From an uncultured SAR86 cluster bacterium (GTDB lineage: Bacteria > Pseudomonadota > Gammaproteobacteria > Magnimaribacterales > D2472): a stretch of 64,000 nucleotides of DNA. The stretch covers positions 334,104 to 398,103 of the forward strand of contig CACIJE010000001.1 of assembly GCA_902586925.1 (NCBI GenBank). The letters are read 5' to 3'. Under the pieces are notes generated by a model, which saw only the letters and a program-made list of their open reading frames with translations, was not told the origin of the DNA and did not search any database. Made by a program: the position numbers and the translations under genes. This document shows positions 16,596 through 27,032 of the stretch, piece after piece (position 1 is the first letter of the stretch; every line of letters begins with the position of its first letter).

Positions 16596-16757
16596 ATGGA
16601 TAATAAAATATTAGAAAACTTAGAAAAATTAAAAAAAATGCTTGTTCTTCTAAGCGAAGAAAGAAAAGTTGTTTTATCTCATCATAAAACATTTGAGCAT
16701 GTTGAAAAAATGAGATCAATCGTAAATGAATCAATAGATATGGCAAATAAATCATGA
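16596..16757 (+). CDS. Small 53-residue helical protein coupled to the isomerase gene
   Basis: ATG at 16596 to TGA at 16757 encodes 53 residues (begins MDNKILENLEKLKKMLVLLS, ends DMANKS). The TGA overlaps the next ATG (ATGA). Composition is charged with a Leu heptad in the first 20 residues, so a short coiled coil or dimer is likely; no membrane segment. The overlap and same-strand position argue that it is real. I do not recognise the family. Confidence 0.6.
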   Translation: MDNKILENLEKLKKMLVLLSEERKVVLSHHKTFEHVEKMRSIVNESIDMANKS

Positions 16758-17617
16758 GTAAAAATAAATATAAGTGTTTTAATCTTAATGTTTCAGAAAA
16801 CATAGCAAATTTAATATTTTCGAGACCTGACGAGTTAAACACAATGTCTAGAGACTTTTGGGTTGAGCTTGGTGATGTATTAGATGAAATTAATAGGAAT
16901 TCAGATATAAGGGTTGTTGTAATGTCCTCAACAGGTAAGCACTTTTGTGCAGGAATGGACCTTAATGCATTTTCTAATGGTGTTGATAATATTCCAGATG
17001 ATAAAAAACCAGATAGTGCTAGAGTTGGCGAAGCAGTTTATAGAGTTGCCAAAGAACTTCAAGGATATATAAGCACTTTAGAAAAAATTAGAGTTCCTGT
17101 GATCGCGGCTATCCAAGGAGGTTGTATTGGGGGTGCAGTCGATCTTGTTACTGCATGTGATATCAGACTAGCATCTAATGATGCGTTTTTTTGTATTCAA
17201 GAAGTTAATATTGGAATGGCGGCTGATGTTGGAACATTACAAAGACTTCCAAGAATTATTCCTGATTCAAAAATGCGTGAATTAGCATATACAGGAAGAA
17301 GAATGTATGCAGATGAGGCTAAAGAAACTGGACTTGTAAGTAATACATACGACTGTCAAGATAAAATGCTTGAAGCAGCTAATAGTCTTGCAAAAGAAAT
17401 TGCTTCAAAATCTCCTGTTGCTATATACGGTTTAAAAGCGGTTATGAATTATTCAAGAGATCATAGTGTTAAAGATGGCCTTGAATATAATGCTCTATGG
17501 AGTGGTGCAATGCTCAGTCAAAAGGATATGACTGAAGCTATGACAGCCAACATGGAAAAAAGAGAAGCGTCTTTTAATGATTTGGTTGACGTGAAAAAAT
17601 TTAATGAATCAGATTAA
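16754..17617 (+). CDS. Crotonase-family protein, delta(3,5)-delta(2,4)-dienoyl-CoA isomerase-like
   Basis: 287 residues. Crotonase oxyanion segments GKHFCAGMDL and QGGCIGGAVDL. The run CIQEVNIGMAADVGTLQRLP matches the dienoyl-CoA isomerase (ECH1) subgroup, with the acidic residues Glu (in QEVNIG) and Asp (in AADVGT) where ECH1 has its catalytic pair. Expected role: degrading unsaturated fatty acids with odd-numbered double bonds. It starts inside the stop of the 53-residue ORF and its 3' end overlaps yaaA by 4 bases, convergently. Confidence 0.85.
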   Translation: MSKNKYKCFNLNVSENIANLIFSRPDELNTMSRDFWVELGDVLDEINRNSDIRVVVMSSTGKHFCAGMDLNAFSNGVDNIPDDKKPDSARVGEAVYRVAKELQGYISTLEKIRVPVIAAIQGGCIGGAVDLVTACDIRLASNDAFFCIQEVNIGMAADVGTLQRLPRIIPDSKMRELAYTGRRMYADEAKETGLVSNTYDCQDKMLEAANSLAKEIASKSPVAIYGLKAVMNYSRDHSVKDGLEYNALWSGAMLSQKDMTEAMTANMEKREASFNDLVDVKKFNESD

Positions 17618-18384
17618 GGTTTTCTTAAAAATACAGGTATTGTTGAAGTAGACTCTGATCTGGAATACTTGTAGCCATCAACATTAAATCCAACGAGTTC
17701 CTCAAAGTCAGTAACTTTGTTTTGTATAATCCATTTTGCCATTAAACCTCTAGCTTTTTTTGCATAAAAACTGATGATTTTATATTTTCCATTTTTGTAA
17801 TCTTTAAACGTTGGAGATACAACATTTACTTCTTCAGGAAGCTTACCGAGAACAGTAAAATATTCTTTAGATGCAAGATTAATTAGAAGATCAGATTTTT
17901 GATTGTTCAATTCTTCTAAAACATTCTTTTGAACTTTATTGCCCCAAAATTCATAAAGATTTTTACCTTCAGAGGTTTCTAATTTAGTACCCATTTCAAG
18001 TCTGTAAGGTTTCATTAAGTCAAGTGGTCTTAATATTCCATATAAACCAGATAAAATTCTTATATGCTTTTGTGCAAACTTCATTTCTGATTTACTTAAG
18101 TCTTCAGCTTGAAGTCCTTGATAAACATCGCCTTTGAAAACTAGCATCGATGGCTTTGAGCTAGATGACAATTTCTTAGATGCGGACCATGTTTGATACC
18201 TATCATAATTGAGGCTAGCAAGCTTATCACTCAACCCCATGAGAGATGCAATATCTTTAGGCTCCTTCTTTTTTAACTGAGTTATTAATTTTGATGACTG
18301 ATTTAAAAATGAAGGTACAGAATAATCGTGAGGAGACTCAAACTCATAATCAAGTGTTTTTGCTGGAGAAAGTACTATAATCAT
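17614..18384 (-). CDS. yaaA: YaaA family peroxide-stress DNA-binding protein (DUF328)
   Basis: 256 residues, full length. Begins MIIVLSPAKTLDYE, then HIRILSGLYGILRPLDLMKPYRLEMG in two segments, NLASKEYF, and the C-terminal FVNxDGYKYS-type end (GFNVDGYKYS). E. coli YaaA limits iron-driven oxidative damage. It is divergent from dctQ with a 36-base gap. Confidence 0.93.
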   Translation of the reverse strand: MIIVLSPAKTLDYEFESPHDYSVPSFLNQSSKLITQLKKKEPKDIASLMGLSDKLASLNYDRYQTWSASKKLSSSSKPSMLVFKGDVYQGLQAEDLSKSEMKFAQKHIRILSGLYGILRPLDLMKPYRLEMGTKLETSEGKNLYEFWGNKVQKNVLEELNNQKSDLLINLASKEYFTVLGKLPEEVNVVSPTFKDYKNGKYKIISFYAKKARGLMAKWIIQNKVTDFEELVGFNVDGYKYSRSESTSTIPVFLRKP

Positions 18385-18420
18385 GGCTGTATTTTAACCA
18401 ATAGTTAGAGACATACAATA

Positions 18421-18891
18421 ATGTATTTAGAAAAAACCATAAATTCTTTAGGAAAATTCATATCATTAATGATACCTGTTATGACAATATTAATGATAGT
18501 TATAATAGTCGCTCGATATTTCTTTGGTATTGGTCTTACTGGAGCTCAGGAATTGGTTATGTATATTCATGCATTAATTTTCCTAGGATGTGCTGGTTAC
18601 GTTCATTTCAAAGATGAGCATGTAAGAGTAGATATTTTTTATAGAGACTCCTCCAACTCTTACAAAAAAAATATAAACTTTTTTTTAAGTTTGTTTTTCC
18701 TTATTCCAGTATGTTTTGTAGTAGGTTTTTATTCGTATGAGTTAGTTGAAATGTCATGGAAAATAAAAGAAACCTCAACAGAAGCTGGTGGTTTAAATTT
18801 CGTATATCTTCAAAAATCTCTAGTTATTCTTTTTCCTGCCACCCTATTAGCAACTTTTTTGTATCAATTACTAAATAGAAAATGGAAATAA
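18421..18891 (+). CDS. dctQ: TRAP transporter small permease (DctQ type)
   Basis: 156 residues with four membrane helices, including the DctQ features VARYFFGIGLTGAQELVMYI and HVRVDIFY. Forms the membrane part of a tripartite ATP-independent periplasmic transporter with DctM. Overlaps dctM by 10 bases. There is no dctP beside it; the only solute-binding gene of this type in the window is at 25947-27032. Confidence 0.92.
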   Translation: MYLEKTINSLGKFISLMIPVMTILMIVIIVARYFFGIGLTGAQELVMYIHALIFLGCAGYVHFKDEHVRVDIFYRDSSNSYKKNINFFLSLFFLIPVCFVVGFYSYELVEMSWKIKETSTEAGGLNFVYLQKSLVILFPATLLATFLYQLLNRKWK

Positions 18892-20225
18892 TTCCTCTAA
18901 TCCTTTTACTATTAACTTGTTCTGCTTTACTAATAGGTTATCCAGTGGCGCTTACATTAGCAGGAGTCTCAATCTTATTTGCTTTAATTTGTGTTCCTTT
19001 TGAAATTTTTGATCCAACAATTTTTAAAAGTATCCCTATAAGAATCTTTGGGATAATGAATAACGTGACTCTTCTTGCGGTTCCACTATTTATTTTTATG
19101 GGAACTATTCTTGAAAGATCAGGGGTAGCAGCAAAAATGCTTGAAAACATGGCAACCGCATTTAAAAATATCAAAGGAGGCTTATCTATTTCAATAATTA
19201 TTGTTGGTGCATTGCTTGCGGCAAGTACAGGAATTGTTGGAGCTACGGTTGTAACCATGGGTCTTATGTCACTACCAATAATGATAAATCAAGGATATGA
19301 AAAAAGTTTTTCAGCTGGGTTAGTGGCTTCGACAGGAACTTTAGGTCAGATTATCCCCCCATCAATTGCTCTCGTTTTATTGGGGGATGTCATGTCTAAT
19401 GCTTATCAAAGAGCTCAAAATGACATGGGTATATTTTCCCAACAAACTGTTACTGTTGGTGATCTTTTTGTCGGTGCAATTATTCCAGGAGTATTGATAT
19501 GTATTGGATATCTAATTTATACAATATATAAAAATAGAAATAATAAGAATCTTAAAATTTACAATAATGATGCTCAAATAAATCAAATTGAAGTTATAAA
19601 AACTCTAGCTTTGCCAGTAACTTTAATCTTTCTCGTACTTGGATCAATTTTTGCAGGGATTGCAACACCAACAGAGGCTTCAGCAATAGGTGCTTTTGGT
19701 GCCCTAATCATTGCTTATATTAATGGAAAAATAAACTTTGATTTTTTAAAGGAAACCTCTGAAAAAACTGCAATTGTTTCTACAATGATTTTCACAATTC
19801 TCATTGGAGCATCTATTTTTTCATTAATATTTAGGGGTGTTGGTGGAGATGACTTGATTGATTTAATCTTCAATTCTCTTCCTGGAGGAACCTATGCTGC
19901 ATTAATATTTGTTCTTGTAATTATATTTTTGTTAGGTTTCATATTAGATTTTATTGAGATTTGTTACGTAATTATTCCTTTAGTTGCTCCGCCACTTCTA
20001 ATGATGGGTTTTGAACCTGTTTGGCTAGCAATATTATTTGCAATAAATTTACAAACATCATTTTTAACACCGCCTTTTGGATTTTCTTTATTTTATTTAA
20101 GAGGAGTTGCAGATGAATCTATACAGACTTCAGAAATCTATAGGGGTGTTATTCCTTTTATAATGATTCAACTAATTGTTCTGTGGCTTGTTTTAAGTAT
20201 GCCATTTCTGATATTAAATTATTAA
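18882..20225 (+). CDS. dctM: TRAP transporter large permease (DctM type)
   Basis: 447 residues, about twelve membrane segments. Family signatures: VPLFIFMGTILERSGVA, GIVGATVVTMGLMSLP, STGTLGQIIPPSIALV and AGIATPTEASAIGAFGAL. It is the sodium-coupled transport subunit. The subtype with an inserted QRAQNDMGIF stretch resembles permeases paired with TakP/mannitol-type binding proteins. It ends 5 bases before the convergent helicase gene. Confidence 0.93.
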   Translation: MEIIPLILLLLTCSALLIGYPVALTLAGVSILFALICVPFEIFDPTIFKSIPIRIFGIMNNVTLLAVPLFIFMGTILERSGVAAKMLENMATAFKNIKGGLSISIIIVGALLAASTGIVGATVVTMGLMSLPIMINQGYEKSFSAGLVASTGTLGQIIPPSIALVLLGDVMSNAYQRAQNDMGIFSQQTVTVGDLFVGAIIPGVLICIGYLIYTIYKNRNNKNLKIYNNDAQINQIEVIKTLALPVTLIFLVLGSIFAGIATPTEASAIGAFGALIIAYINGKINFDFLKETSEKTAIVSTMIFTILIGASIFSLIFRGVGGDDLIDLIFNSLPGGTYAALIFVLVIIFLLGFILDFIEICYVIIPLVAPPLLMMGFEPVWLAILFAINLQTSFLTPPFGFSLFYLRGVADESIQTSEIYRGVIPFIMIQLIVLWLVLSMPFLILNY

Positions 20226-20229
20226 TCAG

Positions 20230-23172
20230 TTATTCATTTAATAATTCAAGTTGCGCATGCTTTACTAAAAACCATTTTGGGCCCTGCCTTGGAAAAGCAA
20301 CTTTTACATGCAAATTATTTTGGTTTGTAATGCCTGACATTGCTGTATTAAATTCTATTATTGTTCCTTTGTCGCCATCTACAGTCATTACGCTTTTTCC
20401 TACCTTATCTTGATCATCTTCAGTAAGATAATTCTTATTGTTGCTATATTGCTTTATTCTTTTTTGCTCATCATAGGATTTTGATTTAATCTCTTTATTT
20501 TTTATTGTTTTGTTTTGTTCAAGCTCTCTTATAGATTTATTTTTATTTAAATCTTTTTTTAAGGCCATTCTTTTTGCTCTATCTGAGTCAGATGAGACAT
20601 GAAACTTAAAATAATCATCTTCAAAATTACAATTATGAGATGTGCAAACTATTGAAGCACTTGGTCCATGATTAGAAATATCTAGAATAGTCTTTTTGCC
20701 GTCTTCTAGACATTTTGGGCATAAAGCATCATCCAAATTATCACAATATATTTCTGTATTCTTGTAGGCCGGATTATAAAGAACACATGAAAAGAAAACA
20801 TTATATCTTTCGTTTGATCCTCTATAGGGGTTAGTCGTTCTTATCCTCATTCCACCATCTCTACCATTTTTTAAACACTCTGAACATGGCATTATCACAT
20901 TATCTCTGTACACATGTTCTTTATGCTTGATATTGTTGTTCTTACATATCTCAATTATTTCAGCAACAAAATTAGAGGGTTCTAAGGTTTTATGAACAAA
21001 ATAAGTAGTATTTTTAGTTCGTGTCATTGCAACATACATAACCCTTCTTTCTTCGGAGTATAAAAACCTATCATCATCTGGCAAAAAAATTGATATTAAT
21101 GGATCTTCGCCCCACCACATTGGGAAGCCTCTTGAACCAGAATCATTACCTAATATAATTACATAGTCTTTTTCCAAGCCTTTAGTGCTATGAATAGTGT
21201 TCCATTTAAACTCTAAATCAGGTCTAGCTTTTTCAAGTGTTTTAAAATCTATCAGAAACTTGCCGGTTGTTAGTGATCGAATTGTGTGATTGTTTCTAAC
21301 AAGAATGTAGACAGTTTTTTTATTATTTTTATCCTTTGGTATATTTTCAATAATCTTAAGCAAGTACTTGGTGGAATATTTCTCTACTGAAAAAAAACGA
21401 ATTGGTTCAATGTGCTTTGGCTTTTTTGCCACAATATTTTTTTTAACTTGATTTTCATTTTTTTGAATAAAAATTGATGATAATTTTGCAATGTGACTAG
21501 GAAATCTATGGGTTTTTTCAATTAAATGCTTAGAAAAAATATTTGCATCAATCGCATCTAAATGAATATCTTCGTTTGTATCTTCAGTTTTTGCTAACTG
21601 TTTTGCAGATAAAGGAAATTTAAATTTAAATTTTGTTACGGCCTCAATATCTGAACCAGTGAATCTATATATTGACTGCCAATCATCTCCAACCCCAAAA
21701 AGCTTTGATCCCTGATTAAAGGATAAAATAGAGTTTAAAAATCTTTCTCTACTAACAGACAAGTCTTGAAATTCATCCACCAAAATATACTTGAACTTTT
21801 TTAAATTATTAAGCTCATGACTCTCTAACATTTTTGTAGATTTTAGAATCATATCTTCAAAATCATGCTCATTATCATCTTGTAAACTTTTTTCATAAGC
21901 ATTAATAAATGGAATAATTATTTTCCTAAATCTTTTTGCTCTAAATTGATCTTCTAAATTGTCTAGTTTTTTTTCTATTTGAGACGCCGATAGCTGATTT
22001 GCTTTTGCTAATGCTATTGATGATACGATTAACTTCCTAACATTATCTTGATAAAGTTTTTGAACATTTCTATCAATTAAGTCATTTGATATTGGATTCA
22101 GATGGATATTATCTTCTTCAAGCTTTTTTTTGATTTTATTAATAAGTGTATTATTTTGATATTCATAACTATATGTAAAAAGATGGTTTGTTTTTCTCTG
22201 CTTATGTATCTTCTTTTTTTCTAAATATTCATTGATATATTTTTGACCAAATGGTGACTTGCCCTCTGCATTAATAGCAAAGTGCTCAATATATAAATTA
22301 TTTTCAGGAATAAAAAAATCAGGCCGATAATCATAATCCACACCAGGAAATATTTTTTCATAAACAACATTTATGCCCATAGCGATAAGCCAATTAATTA
22401 TTGTCTTTTCTTCTTGAGATTTTACAAATGTTCTACCGTCTAATGCTGGTATTCTTAAAGGCCTTAGATTATCTCTGTCTTTGAATGCATCCCTTTTGTA
22501 GGGATAATCTTGCATAGCTTTATTATATTCAAGCTCATTGTCTGCAAGAGATATAATTGAATGAAACGGACACAAGGATTCAAACTCTCTTAATCTTTTT
22601 CTAATTAACGGATCGTCTTTTTCACATTTCTTTAAAAGATTTTCTATTTGGAGTGTTGCCGATATGTTTTCTGCATCTCTACTCGCGCTATTCGATAAAG
22701 TAGTTTGGCTTTTGGATTCTTTTAAAAGACTATTACCATAAGAGTGGAATGTTTCAACGCATGGGTCTGAATACCCTAACTCATTCAAGTCATTGGTAAT
22801 CTCATCTTTTACGGCTCTATTAAATGCTAAAACTAGTATTTCATTATTTTTTGCAAGTTTGGACTCGATTAAATAACCATATTTTGCTTTTAATATAGAT
22901 GTTTTTCCAGATCCAGCAGAAGCTATAACAATATTTCTGTATGAATCGTCAATAACTGCAAGTCTTTGTTCTTTTGTCAGTTTGTATGACAATAAATTAT
23001 CAAAAAAATCTTTGTATTCTTCTAACAATTTTTTCTTTTTTATTTCAGATGATGAAATTTTTTTTTCTTTTACATTGATTTTTGGTTGAACAACAGGAGT
23101 ATTCTTACCATCTGATGATGAAGAGAATATATACAATATATATGAAACAAAGATAAAAAAGAGTATCTCCAT
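20230..23172 (-). CDS. Membrane-anchored SF1 (UvrD/HelD-like) helicase with inserted nuclease-like domain
   Basis: 980 residues. A membrane helix occupies residues 1-18. Helicase motifs: Walker A ASAGSGKT (84-91), Walker B LVDEFQDLS (about 464), motif III GVGDDWQSIYRFTG, motif V TIHSTKGLEKDYVII, motif VI VMYVAMTRTKN. Between motifs Ia and II, at about 250-350, lies a PD-(D/E)xK-like insertion (EEKTIINWL, YRPDF, LYIEHFAI). The C-terminus has two Cys pairs of zinc-ribbon type (CSEC, CPKC), a charged linker, and a Tudor-like end (KVAFPRQGPKWFLVKHAQLELL) resembling the UvrD tail. Probably acts on DNA near the membrane; repair or defence cannot be told apart. Third gene of a three-gene minus-strand unit. 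Confidence 0.82.
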   Translation of the reverse strand: MEILFFIFVSYILYIFSSSSDGKNTPVVQPKINVKEKKISSSEIKKKKLLEEYKDFFDNLLSYKLTKEQRLAVIDDSYRNIVIASAGSGKTSILKAKYGYLIESKLAKNNEILVLAFNRAVKDEITNDLNELGYSDPCVETFHSYGNSLLKESKSQTTLSNSASRDAENISATLQIENLLKKCEKDDPLIRKRLREFESLCPFHSIISLADNELEYNKAMQDYPYKRDAFKDRDNLRPLRIPALDGRTFVKSQEEKTIINWLIAMGINVVYEKIFPGVDYDYRPDFFIPENNLYIEHFAINAEGKSPFGQKYINEYLEKKKIHKQRKTNHLFTYSYEYQNNTLINKIKKKLEEDNIHLNPISNDLIDRNVQKLYQDNVRKLIVSSIALAKANQLSASQIEKKLDNLEDQFRAKRFRKIIIPFINAYEKSLQDDNEHDFEDMILKSTKMLESHELNNLKKFKYILVDEFQDLSVSRERFLNSILSFNQGSKLFGVGDDWQSIYRFTGSDIEAVTKFKFKFPLSAKQLAKTEDTNEDIHLDAIDANIFSKHLIEKTHRFPSHIAKLSSIFIQKNENQVKKNIVAKKPKHIEPIRFFSVEKYSTKYLLKIIENIPKDKNNKKTVYILVRNNHTIRSLTTGKFLIDFKTLEKARPDLEFKWNTIHSTKGLEKDYVIILGNDSGSRGFPMWWGEDPLISIFLPDDDRFLYSEERRVMYVAMTRTKNTTYFVHKTLEPSNFVAEIIEICKNNNIKHKEHVYRDNVIMPCSECLKNGRDGGMRIRTTNPYRGSNERYNVFFSCVLYNPAYKNTEIYCDNLDDALCPKCLEDGKKTILDISNHGPSASIVCTSHNCNFEDDYFKFHVSSDSDRAKRMALKKDLNKNKSIRELEQNKTIKNKEIKSKSYDEQKRIKQYSNNKNYLTEDDQDKVGKSVMTVDGDKGTIIEFNTAMSGITNQNNLHVKVAFPRQGPKWFLVKHAQLELLNE

Positions 23173-23180
23173 TAAGAAAT

Positions 23181-23543
23181 TTAGTATTTATCTTTGTTAA
23201 TTTTTCTTAGAGAAGGATATTTGCTTACATCTGAAATCTTCTTATATTCTTCCGGCATGTTGTGGAATGATTTTTTTATTTCTACAACATCTTTGGACTT
23301 TTTAAATGAGGAAAACCATTTGAATGATAAAAGGGTCCAAATTATTAATGCAACTGTTATAAAAGTAAAAATACACAAAGGTATAAATAATTTTTCTGGA
23401 TTCGTAGCTAACAACAGAGCTTCGTATTTGCTATACAAAAGGTTTAGTATAAAAATTATTGATATGGATAAAGAGAGTCTAAAGAAGATCTTAGCATTAG
23501 CGGAAATAAATGCTGCTATACCTATTTTTGTTAGCCAGCCCAT
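23181..23543 (-). CDS. Small membrane protein upstream of the helicase (unknown)
   Basis: About 120 residues from ATG at 23543, chosen because GGAG lies 10 bases upstream and it begins 2 bases after the preceding stop; a longer frame to 23612 would overlap that gene. Two clear membrane helices (IFFRLSLSISIIFILNLLY and LFIPLCIFTFITVALIIWTL) and a charged C-terminal tail. The helicase starts 8 bases after its stop. I do not recognise the family. Confidence 0.6.
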   Translation of the reverse strand: MGWLTKIGIAAFISANAKIFFRLSLSISIIFILNLLYSKYEALLLATNPEKLFIPLCIFTFITVALIIWTLLSFKWFSSFKKSKDVVEIKKSFHNMPEEYKKISDVSKYPSLRKINKDKY

Positions 23544-23545
23544 GC

Positions 23546-23791
23546 TTATGGTACTCCAAAGAATGCTATTGCAATCATAGAGGCTATGCCTCCTTTCATA
23601 TATTTTTCCCAAACCTCTCTTTCTTCTTCAGCAACAAGATGCTCCCATTCTTCAACCGATAACTCATTAATCTTTCTACCAGCTAAAATTAAACTAGTTT
23701 CGGCATTAGCAACTGCTCTATTTCTTACCCTCTGTCGTACTTTTAATTCTTGTTTTTTTACAAAGTCTTCAACAGTCTCTACAACTTTCAT
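23546..23791 (-). CDS. Small charged protein with C-terminal hydrophobic tail (unknown)
   Basis: 81 residues. Highly charged helical N-terminal part (VEDFVKKQELKVRQRVRNRA, then EEWEHLVAEEEREVWEKY) and a short hydrophobic end (IASMIAIAFFGVP) that could insert in the membrane. First gene of the unit leading to the helicase. Function unknown; it could bring the membrane and helicase proteins together, but that is a guess. Confidence 0.6.
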   Translation of the reverse strand: MKVVETVEDFVKKQELKVRQRVRNRAVANAETSLILAGRKINELSVEEWEHLVAEEEREVWEKYMKGGIASMIAIAFFGVP

Positions 23792-23846
23792 ATGAAAATT
23801 TTCTCATACTGAGTTTTTTTATCAAATATGTCTGTTAATAGGTGGT

Positions 23847-24809
23847 TTACAAGCCAGCGTTATTTTTTTCTAATGCTCTCTCAGCTCTATAGCTTGATCT
23901 AACCATTGGGCCTGAAACAACCTCAAGAAAACCTTTGTTAAGGCCTATTTGTCTATATTTCTCAAATTCTTCTGGTGTAACCCATCTTTCAATTGGATGA
24001 TGGTTTATAGTTGGTCTCAAATATTGGCCAATTGTAACGATATCAACTTTGTTTTTTGCTAAATCATTCAACGTCTGCTCAATTTCCAAATCTGTCTCAC
24101 CTAATCCAAGAATAATACTTGTTTTAGTAAGAACTTTTGGATTAATTCGCTTTGATTCAGCAAGGACATCAAGTGTTTGTTGATAACCTGCTCTTATATC
24201 TCTAACTTGATGTGTAAGTCTTTCTACTGTTTCAATATTTTGAGCAAACACCTCCAATCCACAATTAACTAAAGTTTCAATAGATGATGAGAGCCCTTTA
24301 AAATCTGGAGTAAGTGCCTCGACAGCTGTGCTAGGATTTAAATCTTTAATTAACTTTACAGTACTAGCAAAATGTTGAGCACCACCATCTGGCAGATCAT
24401 CTCTATTCACTGAAGTCAAAACTACATACTTGAGCTTCATAACTTGGACAGCTTTGGCAATATTTAAAGGCTCGTCTTTATCAAGCCATCCATTTGGATT
24501 ACCTGTATCAACTGAACAAAACTTGCATGCTCTTGTGCATACAGAACCCATAAGCATGAATGTTGCCGTGCCTGCTGACCAACATTCACTAATGTTTGGA
24601 CAATGAGCCTCTTCACAAACTGTATTGAGTTGTTTGCTTTGAACCTGTTCTTTTACCTTATGAAAATTTGGACTAAATTCAGCTTTTACCTTCAACCAAC
24701 TTGGTTTTTTTGGACTGGGAATATGTGCGAACTTATTAAATTTTTGGCCATTTCTAACAGCCTTTATTCCATCCCTATTTGTGATTTTTGATGTAGCTAT
24801 AATTTCCAC
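23847..24809 (-). CDS. lipA: Lipoyl synthase
   Basis: 320 residues, radical SAM. Auxiliary cluster motif [12 protein letters not shown] (C-x4-C-x5-C) and radical-SAM motif CTRACKFC (C-x3-C-x2-C), plus the family run [16 protein letters not shown] and the C-terminal [11 protein letters not shown] with the conserved RSSY Ser ligand. Inserts two sulfurs into octanoyl groups on lipoyl domains. It follows lipB and the TPR gene on the same strand. Confidence 0.97.
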
Positions 24810-24837
24810 AATATTTTAAGTAATGTGAAGTTTATTT

Positions 24838-25290
24838 TTATTGCCAAGATTTAGAATCAATGCCATCAATATATTGTTTTAGCATCTCCAGCTCTTCACA
24901 TGAACTAGGACAAAGGTATTCAAGTTTTGACAAATTTTTCATTGCTTCATCGATCTGATTAAGCTCGACGAACATCTCACCTTGATACTCAAGTGCGATT
25001 TTATTATTAGGCTCTAACATCAAAGCTTTTTCATAGAACTCTTCAGCTTTAGAAAAATTTTTTAGTTTTCTGTTTGTAAACGCTAATAACGTCCAACCAT
25101 CAGCATCATCTTTTTCAGCTTTTGTATATTTTTTTAATGTAGTGAGGGCTGCTTTATACTTTTCTTTTTTTAACTGTTTCGTCGCTTTTTCATAAAGATC
25201 AGATGGATTTTCCTTATCATATTTTGAAGCGCTAAGCTCATAAGAAAAGGACATCATCAAAGTAAAAAATATAACTACTAGTTTTTTCAT
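24838..25290 (-). CDS. Exported TPR protein between lipB and lipA
   Basis: 150 residues. Signal peptide (LVVIFFTLMMSFSYELSA) and three TPR-like helical pairs (ADGWTLLAFTNRKLKNFSKA, EEFYEKALMLEPNNKIALE, GEMFVELNQIDEAMKNL). A periplasmic location is predicted. A late Cys pair (LCPSSCEEL) could form a disulfide. No link to lipoylation is evident beyond position. Confidence 0.75.
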   Translation of the reverse strand: MKKLVVIFFTLMMSFSYELSASKYDKENPSDLYEKATKQLKKEKYKAALTTLKKYTKAEKDDADGWTLLAFTNRKLKNFSKAEEFYEKALMLEPNNKIALEYQGEMFVELNQIDEAMKNLSKLEYLCPSSCEELEMLKQYIDGIDSKSWQ

Positions 25291-25344
25291 AACATTAATA
25301 TATGTCTATAGTATTGATAAAACAAGGCTCATTTTTTAAAGAAT

Positions 25345-25947
25345 TTAAAATATTTTTCTTAATAAATCTATTGCTTTTTTTTCTAGCTCAATTTTAGTGA
25401 TGCTCTTATTTAGATTTTTTATTTGTGTTACTTCTAATCCTTTATAGCCACATGGATTAATTTGCTCGAATGGAGTTAAATCCATATCAAAATTTATACT
25501 AATGCCATGATATGACTTGCCTCTTGAAAATCTAAGCCCAATAGATGCTATCTTCTTTTTATCTATATATACACCTGGAGCATTTTCAATAAAACTAGAC
25601 TCTATTGCCATATCTGCTAAAAGCTCCTTAACAAAATCCTGAATTATTGTCACAAATTTTCTTGGAGATAATTCTAGTTTAGCTATATCTAACAAGAAAT
25701 AAATTACTAACTGGCCAGGTCCATGGTATGTAACCTCGCCTCCTCTATCGGATTGAACAATGGGAATTTCTTTAGAGTCTAAAATATTGTTCTTATTCGC
25801 AGCAGTTCCAAGAGTAAATACTGGTGGATGTTCGAGAAGCCATATTTCATTCGTAAAATCTTTTTCTTTTACATGAGATTTCATGAGATCTAATGTCTCA
25901 AAATAATTTACTCTTCCAAGAGATTTAAAAGTTAGGTCTTCAAGCAC
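25345..25947 (-). CDS. lipB: Octanoyl-[acyl-carrier-protein]:protein octanoyltransferase
   Basis: 200 residues. Motifs DRGGEVTYHGPGQLVIY, KIASIGLRFSRGKSYHGISI (catalytic Lys in KIASIG) and the catalytic Cys in INPCGYKGLEVTQ. Transfers octanoate from ACP to lipoyl domains, the step before LipA. Its start shares a base with the end of the TRAP binding-protein gene. Confidence 0.95.
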   Translation of the reverse strand: MLEDLTFKSLGRVNYFETLDLMKSHVKEKDFTNEIWLLEHPPVFTLGTAANKNNILDSKEIPIVQSDRGGEVTYHGPGQLVIYFLLDIAKLELSPRKFVTIIQDFVKELLADMAIESSFIENAPGVYIDKKKIASIGLRFSRGKSYHGISINFDMDLTPFEQINPCGYKGLEVTQIKNLNKSITKIELEKKAIDLLRKIF

Positions 25948-27032
25948 TACTTATTTCTTGCTTCAACAAAAGCATCTTCAGATACTTGATGATAAGCAGA
26001 TACCTCTGCTTTAAAGTTTTTATATGATTGATAAACTTTTTTAACGATCTCATCTTTTTCAGCATTTTCTTCAAGGATTTGATTTGCAATATCCTTAAAT
26101 TCAGCAATAACATCATCCGGTAACTTTCTCAACTCAACTCCATGAACATCTACTAACTCTCGTAAGGCTTTATTATTTCTGGCAGTGTATTCGTCCAACA
26201 AATCCTGATTAACTGCTTTTGCTGCAGTATCGATAATAACTTTTAGATGATTAGGTAATGCATCCCATTCATCTTTATTAATTAAAAGTTCTAGCATTGA
26301 TCCTGGTTCATGCCATCCAGGATAATAATAATACTTAGCAACTTTTTGAAATCCAAACGTTAAATCGTTGTAGGGTCCAACCCATTCGGTTGCATCAATC
26401 ACTCCTGTCTGCAATGCAGTAAATAACTCTCCACCAGGAAGTGTTACTGGAATTCCGCCAGCTCTTTTTAGAACTTCACCACCTATTCCGGGGATCCTCA
26501 TTTTTAAACCTTTAATATCATCTAAAGAATTGATTTCTTTGTTAAACCAACCAAACATCTGTGTTCCAGTATTGCCTGCTGGTATTGGATAAATATTAAA
26601 TGGTTCATAAACTTCTCTCCATAATTCCAATCCACCTGCCCTGTTGGTCCATGCATTAATTTCATCTGCTGTTAACCCAAATGGAACACCTGTAAAAAAT
26701 TGTGCTGCGGGTGCTTTACCTTTCCAAAAATAGCCACCACTATGGCCCATTTGGTGGGAGCCACTTGATACAGCATCGAATACTCCAAATGCAGGAACTT
26801 GCTCTCCAGCACCAAAAACAGTAATTTTCATCTGTCCATTACTCATTTCTTCAACTAATCTGGCTATTCTTTCTGGTGCCATTCCAAGTCCAGGATAATT
26901 TTTTGGCCATGCTGTAACTAAGCGCCAATCATATGTTTTGTACTCATTCACTTCATTCTTTAGAGTGTTATCAGTTTCTTGAGAGCAGCTTATAACACCT
27001 AAAAGGACCAGTGGTAATAACAATTTCTTCAT
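25947..27032 (-). CDS. dctP: TRAP transporter solute-binding lipoprotein, TakP-like
   Basis: 361 residues. A type II signal with VISC lipobox (residues 13-16) suggests a lipid-anchored protein. DctP-family landmarks: GHSGGYFWKGKAPAAQFF, GMRIPGIGGE-type segment with the ligand-binding Arg (KGLKMRIPGIGG), DATEWVGPYND and YYPGWHEPGS. The last two match the alpha-keto-acid binder TakP of Rhodobacter (Trp and Glu of the ligand site). A 2-oxoacid or similar carboxylate is the likely substrate. Matching permeases are probably dctQM at 18.4-20.2 kb. Overlaps uvrD by one base. Confidence 0.87.
   Translation of the reverse strand: MKKLLLPLVLLGVISCSQETDNTLKNEVNEYKTYDWRLVTAWPKNYPGLGMAPERIARLVEEMSNGQMKITVFGAGEQVPAFGVFDAVSSGSHQMGHSGGYFWKGKAPAAQFFTGVPFGLTADEINAWTNRAGGLELWREVYEPFNIYPIPAGNTGTQMFGWFNKEINSLDDIKGLKMRIPGIGGEVLKRAGGIPVTLPGGELFTALQTGVIDATEWVGPYNDLTFGFQKVAKYYYYPGWHEPGSMLELLINKDEWDALPNHLKVIIDTAAKAVNQDLLDEYTARNNKALRELVDVHGVELRKLPDDVIAEFKDIANQILEENAEKDEIVKKVYQSYKNFKAEVSAYHQVSEDAFVEARNK

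What the first reader, a model, noticed from the sequence alone, without database searches (positions are those of the whole stretch)
20230..23791. Membrane-tethered helicase-nuclease fusion with two small co-transcribed partners
The 980-residue protein combines an N-terminal helix, SF1 helicase motifs, a PD-(D/E)xK-like insertion (RPDF ... YIEHF) between motifs Ia and II, zinc-ribbon Cys pairs and a UvrD-like Tudor end. Two unrecognised genes (81 and about 120 residues, the second with two TM helices) precede it within 8 bases. The trio sits between a TRAP permease and lipA as an accessory block, suggestive of a membrane-linked DNA degradation system.
Basis: partly seen in the sequence, partly recalled or inferred. 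Interest (0 to 1): 0.6.

Follow-up and report, generated by a model that had tools for sequence, protein, structure and literature searches.

The report
Membrane-anchored helicase with built-in nuclease
A rare accessory gene in this small bacterial genome makes a DNA-unwinding motor with a DNA-cutting domain built into it and, in this branch of the family, a predicted membrane anchor, which suggests an enzyme that cuts DNA at the cell membrane, perhaps incoming foreign DNA; the two small neighbouring genes look like unrelated passengers.

Summary
The 980-residue protein is real and its helicase motifs are intact. It is a relative of DNA helicase IV (281 bits; cut-off 543) with an insert at residues ~245-358. 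The insert models as a Vsr-like PD-(D/E)XK endonuclease (core pLDDT ~97; best match I-Bth0305I, Z 11.3), and E255/D285/E296/K319 are all kept in 41 of 42 family members compared. The membrane anchor is a prediction from hydropathy, but it recurs: 11 of 43 insert-bearing proteins have an N-terminal hydrophobic helix, including all three found in the window's order. The trio is not a system. Each small gene is matched in 10 of 203 genomes of the order (adjacent in eight), the helicase in 3 of 203; only the window genome has both. They share a variable gap between lipA and the TRAP permease gene. No partner recurs beside other copies. Best reading: a stand-alone, accessory, inner-membrane-tethered helicase-nuclease that degrades DNA at the membrane, most likely foreign DNA, comparable in layout to SNIPE but built from different domains. 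Activity and role are inferred; clustering with defence genes was not shown. New variant of a known kind.

The parts
20230..23172 (-). helicase-nuclease gene, 980 aa (P0001)
   Evidence: open frame; Pfam UvrD-helicase E 3.6e-41; NCBIfam helicase IV E 2.1e-83 but below cut-off; Foldseek best match UvrD 2is6 E 6.2e-19 for the full model
23122..23166 (-). predicted N-terminal membrane anchor, residues 3-17; no positive charge before it, lysines after it (N-out/C-in expected)
   Evidence: hydropathy scan; helix 2-19 at pLDDT ~54-59
22693..23007 (-). helicase motor, first part (residues 56-160)
22099..22440 (-). Vsr-like PD-(D/E)XK nuclease insert (residues 245-358; E255, D285, E296, K319, H323)
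   Evidence: model m2cfcbdde71fa, fold comparison, conservation
21763..21777 (-). DEFQD, motif II (residues 466-470)
   Evidence: invariant (F468 only)
20629..20886 (-). two four-Cys clusters, zinc-ribbon-like (residues 763-848)
   Evidence: Cys positions; PF01396 matches 9 of 11 aligned members but not this protein
20245..20421 (-). UvrD-Tudor-like tail (residues 918-976), weak
   Evidence: phmmer to 7egs_B E 0.066 and 6yi2_A E 0.078
23181..23543 (-). 120-aa gene with two hydrophobic segments; independent of the helicase
   Evidence: matches in 10 of 203 order genomes at E<=0.001, three of them weak; no Pfam hit above cut-off (homologue none)
23546..23791 (-). 81-aa gene; travels with the 120-aa gene, not with the helicase
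   Evidence: 10 of 203 order genomes; alignment A7

Best explanation
The 980-aa protein is a stand-alone, inner-membrane-tethered helicase-nuclease. A short N-terminal helix holds it at the cytoplasmic face of the membrane, where other branches carry a helicase IV N-terminal domain. An SF1 UvrD/helicase-IV-type motor runs along DNA, and a Vsr-like PD-(D/E)XK endonuclease inserted between the TFHS block and motif II cuts the DNA as it is unwound. Zinc ribbons, and perhaps a Tudor-like tail, add DNA or partner contacts. Tethering should spare the nucleoid and favour DNA that enters or is exposed at the membrane, so the most likely job is removal of incoming foreign DNA (phage or plasmid). The two small genes upstream are an unrelated module that shares the same variable chromosomal site. 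Shown here: the architecture, conservation of the catalytic set, recurrence of the N-terminal helix, sporadic distribution, independence from the small genes. Inferred: membrane location, nuclease activity, substrate and role.
For: Helicase core. Nuclease: AlphaFold2 model of residues 200-372 with 30 relatives, mean pLDDT 86.3 and ~97 in the core; second-look matches I-Bth0305I Z 11.3, Vsr 8.8, TnsA 8.1, Bax1 8.0 and, below them, mostly further PD-(D/E)XK enzymes. E/D/E/K all present in 41 of 42. Anchor: hydropathy 2.4 or more within the first 40 residues in 11 of 43 insert-bearing proteins, including all three copies of the order; the tree needs 3 changes of that label against a shuffled mean of 10.0; the three order copies form a clade (SH-aLRT 99) and all keep the helix. 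Accessory: 2 of 107 family genomes at E<=1e-50, 3 of 203 order genomes at E<=1e-80, 6 of 369 class genomes at E<=1e-40, own genome included each time; also on plasmids (229 records with some match, many of them only general UvrD matches; strongest in Vibrio, Methylotuvimicrobium and Acinetobacter). Precedent for the logic: SNIPE, an N-out single-TM, otherwise cytoplasmic nuclease; without its TM it localises to and cuts host DNA (PMC13190303: abstract, section 9 and passages).
Against: The anchor of the window protein is short (about 14-15 hydrophobic residues) and rests on hydropathy alone; the 2.4 threshold was set after seeing the values (next lower 1.89). 32 of 43 proteins have no such helix, so tethering is not essential to the family. 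Foldseek alone gave no significant nuclease match (best E 0.017). Neighbour genes of 29 relatives show no recurring partner, and defence-model hits are few: at most 2 of 142 proteins per PADLOC family, as in the control (2 of 149). 101 against 29 families were matched, but 23 of the 25 shown for the test set are overlapping GajB models with 2 members each. Two members have a degenerate nuclease site (L027; L209, by eye). No defence gene was recognised by eye next to the window copy.
Confidence: 0.5

Rival explanations
1. An accessory DNA-repair or recombination helicase-nuclease that cuts branched or damaged DNA, like Vsr or the XPB-Bax1 pair; the N-terminal helix only concentrates it at membrane-attached chromosome or plasmid DNA.
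For: Among the closest folds are Vsr and Bax1, the nuclease partner of the XPB helicase; the motor is nearest helicase IV, PcrA, UvrD and Rep; the tail weakly resembles the UvrD Tudor domain; no convincing enrichment of defence genes nearby.
Against: Patchy distribution (3 of 203 order genomes; 6 of 369 class genomes), presence on plasmids and, in the window, in a variable chromosomal slot are unusual for a repair function.
Confidence: 0.3
2. One reading: a three-gene membrane-linked DNA degradation system made of the helicase and the two small proteins.
For: Same strand, spacings of 2 and 8 bases, so probably one transcript in this genome.
Against: The 81-aa gene is in 9 other genomes of the order without the helicase; the other two order genomes with the helicase have neither small gene, and neither is beside the copies in 47 other loci. 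About 0.15 shared genomes are expected by chance and one is seen, which is not informative.
Confidence: 0.04
3. The insert is a structural, catalytically silent DNA-binding domain in a soluble helicase, and the N-terminal hydrophobic stretch is not an anchor.
For: Degenerate sites in L027 and L209; the anchor in this protein is short and modelled at low confidence.
Against: 41 of 42 keep E, D, E and K together while the insert as a whole is only 22-33% identical to the window copy; hydrophobic N-terminal helices recur in 11 of 43.
Confidence: 0.1

Closest known systems
DNA helicase IV (E. coli HelD; NCBIfam NF008276, Pfam PF12462 N-terminal domain)
   Same: best-scoring NCBIfam family for the window protein and for the six other insert-bearing members scanned
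   Different: the helicase IV of L143 is 684 aa, has no nuclease insert and scores 1168 bits; the window protein scores 281 and the six others 290-534 against a cut-off of 543; no PF12462 in the window protein
Vsr / I-Bth0305I-type PD-(D/E)XK endonucleases
   Same: core fold of the insert
   Different: those are separate enzymes or a homing-endonuclease domain; here the domain sits inside a helicase and the motif reads E...PDF...E-H-F...K. In Vsr the (D/E)XK half-motif is replaced by FXH (PMC1189080, passages)
SNIPE (membrane-bound anti-phage nuclease, PMC13190303)
   Same: predicted single N-terminal helix, cytoplasmic DNA-handling and cutting part, sporadic distribution; a works-like comparison only
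   Different: SNIPE is DUF4041 plus GIY-YIG; neither domain is found here, and the word helicase does not occur in the main text of that paper
AddA, RecB, AdnAB and Gabija GajB (UvrD-type helicases tied to nucleases)
   Same: related motors; a GajB PADLOC model matches at E 8.2e-41; AddAB, AdnAB and RecBCD are among the fold matches
   Different: far below NCBIfam cut-offs for AddA and RecB; no GajA-like gene recognised by eye among the listed ORFs; in AddA and RecB the nuclease is C-terminal (recalled)
NERD+UvrD candidate defence protein (PADLOC C3a187)
   Same: nuclease-like domain plus UvrD helicase; one lies near the V. parahaemolyticus copy
   Different: NERD is N-terminal there and is not matched in the window protein

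Membership tests
DNA helicase IV (HelD) equivalog | whole-protein score at or above 543 bits (NF008276) | tested here: not met
   281 bits; control L143 1167.9 bits
DNA helicase IV (HelD) equivalog | Helicase_IV_N domain (PF12462) | tested here: not met
   no hit in P0001 at E<=10; 5 of 11 aligned members have it at E<=0.01
SF1 UvrD/Rep-type helicases | helicase motifs and UvrD-helicase domain | tested here: met
   PF00580 142.1 bits against cut-off 23; invariant motif residues; UvrD fold
PD-(D/E)XK superfamily | restriction-endonuclease-like core fold | tested here: met
   confident model and second-look matches up to Z 11.3; Foldseek alone was not significant (best E 0.017)
PD-(D/E)XK superfamily | conserved catalytic acidic residues and lysine | tested here: met
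   E255/D285/E296/K319 all kept in 41 of 42; the lysine is not at the E-x-K position, and that K319 takes that role is inferred
PD-(D/E)XK superfamily | nuclease activity | not testable with these tools
   needs purified protein
SNIPE | DUF4041 and GIY-YIG domains | tested here: not met
   no such Pfam hit at E<=10
SNIPE | N-out single transmembrane helix, cytoplasmic body | tested here: inconclusive
   hydropathy and charge pattern fit; no dedicated predictor or experiment
Gabija (GajAB) | GajA OLD-type nuclease encoded next to GajB | tested here: inconclusive
   none recognised by eye among the ORFs listed at 16754-27032; the neighbours were not scanned with GajA models
AddA / RecB | curated whole-protein score | tested here: not met
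   AddA 53.1 against 707.65 and RecB 49.4 against 696.05 bits

The most novel reading that the evidence does not exclude
A branch of helicase-IV-like proteins carries a membrane helix at its N-terminus and a Vsr-like nuclease inside the motor, making single-gene, membrane-posted machines that grip, unwind and shred foreign DNA as it crosses the inner membrane: a powered counterpart of SNIPE.
Probability: 0.3. Interest if true: 0.75.

Novelty: new variant of a known kind. Interest (0 to 1): 0.5.

Why it matters
If the anchor and the nuclease are active, this would be a second, unrelated design for telling foreign from own DNA by where it is in the cell rather than by its sequence, this time with a motor. 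It also points to a domain that annotation misses: in the Pfam scans here no nuclease model matched the insert, and the plasmid copies are mostly annotated just as UvrD-helicase domain-containing proteins. A single gene makes it easy to test.

Tried and rejected
Trio as a system: rejected on distribution. Defence-gene enrichment: looked for with PADLOC and Pfam on 142 neighbour proteins of 29 loci (trimmed from 177 to three per side; loci of near-copies left out beforehand) against 149 neighbours from 30 loci of other SF1 helicases of the same viral collection; no recurring partner, so not claimed. The control is imperfect: phage genes rather than random sites of the same replicons, and the output gives members per family, not the number of proteins with any hit. 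PH-like nature of the helicase IV N-terminal domain (an idea from SNIPE homologues with such domains): no support in Pfam or PDB sequence searches of 12 N-termini; not modelled. IMG/VR scan with the single sequence found nothing; the alignment scan kept 80 loci, of which 35 complete or partial insert-family copies (L108-L142) and L147 were used and the rest are other UvrD-type or true helicase IV. The genome-contig scan gave only 8 Oscillospiraceae loci, whose best alignments lie mainly outside the insert. Tudor tail: weak. In some searches the other matches are mitoribosomal proteins and, many influenza PA endonucleases at low probability; I did not follow these.

Rows dropped before counts: the 42 leave out the recalled HelD and L143; L122, L129, L137, L138 and L142 (incomplete), L143-L146 (684-688 aa; only L143 was aligned, without insert) and L148 were not in the alignment. 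Eight closely related rows (L108-L112, L115, L130, L136) were not collapsed. The 43 are these 42 plus the G491 protein. L128 was left out of the structure alignment.

Literature: seven answered searches (listings and starts of abstracts) and passages of five papers showed no description of this architecture; subscription journals are mostly not held.
Full report
What is there. On the - strand of 20230-23791 lie three genes in the order 81 aa, 120 aa, 980 aa, with gaps of 2 and 8 bases. The genome is held without a name (1.18 Mb in 9 contigs, 94.6% complete; window G+C 32%). It looks to me like an AT-rich marine gammaproteobacterium of the SAR86 kind, which is a guess and not a result.

The helicase. 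Pfam and NCBIfam place the 980-aa protein among UvrD-type SF1 helicases, closest to DNA helicase IV but at 281 bits, far under that family's cut-off of 543. A 684-aa helicase IV from the viral collection (L143) scores 1168; six other insert-bearing members score 290-534. The motor motif blocks are present, and residues such as A86, G87, G89, K90, D466, E467, Q469, D470, R556, R626, H661, R710 and R718 are invariant in both alignments of relatives (11 rows; 26 rows). The full model (mean pLDDT 69.4) finds UvrD, PcrA, Rep and AddAB as best folds.

The nuclease. Residues ~245-358 have no counterpart in L143. Residues 200-372 were modelled with 30 relatives: mean pLDDT 86.3, about 97 over the core. 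Foldseek by itself gave no match at E<=0.001 (best I-Bth0305I, E 0.017). The second-look alignment gave I-Bth0305I Z 11.3 over 95 residues, Vsr 8.8 and 8.7, TnsA 8.1, Bax1 8.0 and below them mostly further PD-(D/E)XK enzymes, with three mitoribosomal entries among the top eleven rows (the tool warns that Z under 8 can be a common arrangement). E255, D285, E296 and K319 occur together in 41 of 42 family members, the window protein included; H323 is kept in 39 of 42, Y271 and Y312 in 42 of 42. The exception is L027; a further copy found later, L209, looks degenerate by eye.

Where the domain occurs. Searched as a profile in 398 genomes of the phylum, the insert matched in 35 at E<=1e-6. The 17 matches with E<=1e-20 (16 genomes, the window's included) all sit in open frames of 881-1019 aa, of helicase size; I read only some of these proteins. 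Of the 21 weaker matches, 18 lie in open frames of 262-353 aa; the three that I read have no helicase. One lies in a different UvrD-type helicase (L210).

The anchor. In 28 of the 38 proteins where the scan located the Walker A motif it lies 200 or more residues from the start; in the window protein it lies at 83. In 5 of 11 aligned members the N-terminal part is recognised as the helicase IV N-terminal domain. The window protein begins instead with a hydrophobic helix. A scan of 43 insert-bearing proteins found such a helix (15-residue hydropathy 2.4 or more within the first 40 residues) in 11, including the other two copies in the order, G035 and G491. Start codons were taken mechanically. 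The tree of the motor, a quick one, needs 3 changes of that label (shuffled mean 10.0; 0 of 500 shuffles as low). The three copies of the order form a clade with support 99, and 11 of the 16 rows of the surrounding clade carry the helix (support 87). In the window protein, and in the others whose N-terminus I read, positive charges follow the helix, so the body should lie in the cytoplasm; this is the usual positive-inside reasoning, not a test.

The small genes. The 81-aa and the 120-aa gene are each matched in 10 of 203 genomes of the order at E<=0.001, three of the latter weakly (1e-5 to 6e-4), and at adjacent positions in eight. In six, all of the window's family, they lie between lipA and the permease gene. 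The helicase is matched in 3 of 203 at E<=1e-80. Only the window genome has both. Neither small gene is found in 47 loci that hold other copies of the helicase family (flanks are limited, and the G035 copy has only 581 bases of contig upstream). Of 45 lipA loci examined (40 chosen from the 85 genomes with a lipA match, five added because they carry the pair), 43 show the junction with the permease gene. The gap varies from 0 to 4275 bases with different contents, and none of the 43 holds the helicase. The site is therefore a variable slot, and the trio most likely an accident of insertion.

Context of other copies. By extent of match the family is on plasmids of Vibrio, Acinetobacter, Methylotuvimicrobium and rhizobia; I read the Vibrio, Acinetobacter and Methylotuvimicrobium copies. 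Some neighbours are suggestive: a NERD+UvrD protein, DUF262 and DUF3320 genes in V. parahaemolyticus; an abortive-infection family gene in Vibrio THAF190c; ThiF and multiubiquitin genes in A. baumannii; a WYL regulator, an RmuC protein and a PIF1-like helicase in G491. But no family recurs beyond 2 of 142 neighbours in PADLOC or 4 of 142 (recombinase domains) in Pfam, and the maximum per family was the same in a rough control (2 of 149). I do not claim enrichment of defence genes.

How it may work. The best-supported sequence is tether, grip, unwind, cut. SNIPE shows that tethering a nuclease to the inner membrane can direct it at incoming phage DNA, and that freeing it lets it cut the host chromosome (PMC13190303, passages). 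Here the enzyme is different, so this is an analogy of layout. The main rival is an accessory repair function.

Verdict. The insert-bearing helicase is an annotated but, as far as I could find, uncharacterised kind of protein, and I found no description of its membrane-anchored branch in the papers I could search (listings).

Noticed in passing
window 23181-23791; G556 C1:952467-953050; G511 C7:22004-22567: The 81-aa and 120-aa genes form their own two-gene module (each matched in 10 of 203 order genomes, adjacent in eight), without a Pfam family, with hydrophobic segments; function unknown.
   Followed up: partly
junction lipA - TRAP permease, window 20226-23846 and loci L033-L037, L068-L107: Variable chromosomal slot: gap of 0 to 4275 bases in 43 junctions, with differing genes (DUF805-like, GDSL-like and others by eye).
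   Followed up: partly
L005:588-1118, L036:5402-5920: A ~176-180-aa gene with a DnaJ-like Cys motif at its end lies after the small pair in G058 and G067, in the place the helicase takes in the window.
   Followed up: partly
L191:2616-5921 (G491): Another order copy of the helicase lies beside a WYL/WCX regulator, an RmuC protein with an N-terminal hydrophobic stretch (by eye) and a PIF1-like helicase.
   Followed up: partly
L027:6855-9773 and L209:418-3060: Copies of the family with a degenerate nuclease site, so the insert may have lost catalysis in some lineages.
   Followed up: no
L213:1492-2475, L214:1495-2385, L218:1000-1866, L210:245-1582: The same nuclease domain occurs, more distantly, in ~290-330-aa proteins without a helicase and inside another UvrD-type helicase.
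   Followed up: partly
L008:17-1096 (also in the lipA gaps of L034 and L103-L106): A ~300-360-aa protein, probably secreted, recurs in the lipA slot of several genomes; not identified.
   Followed up: no
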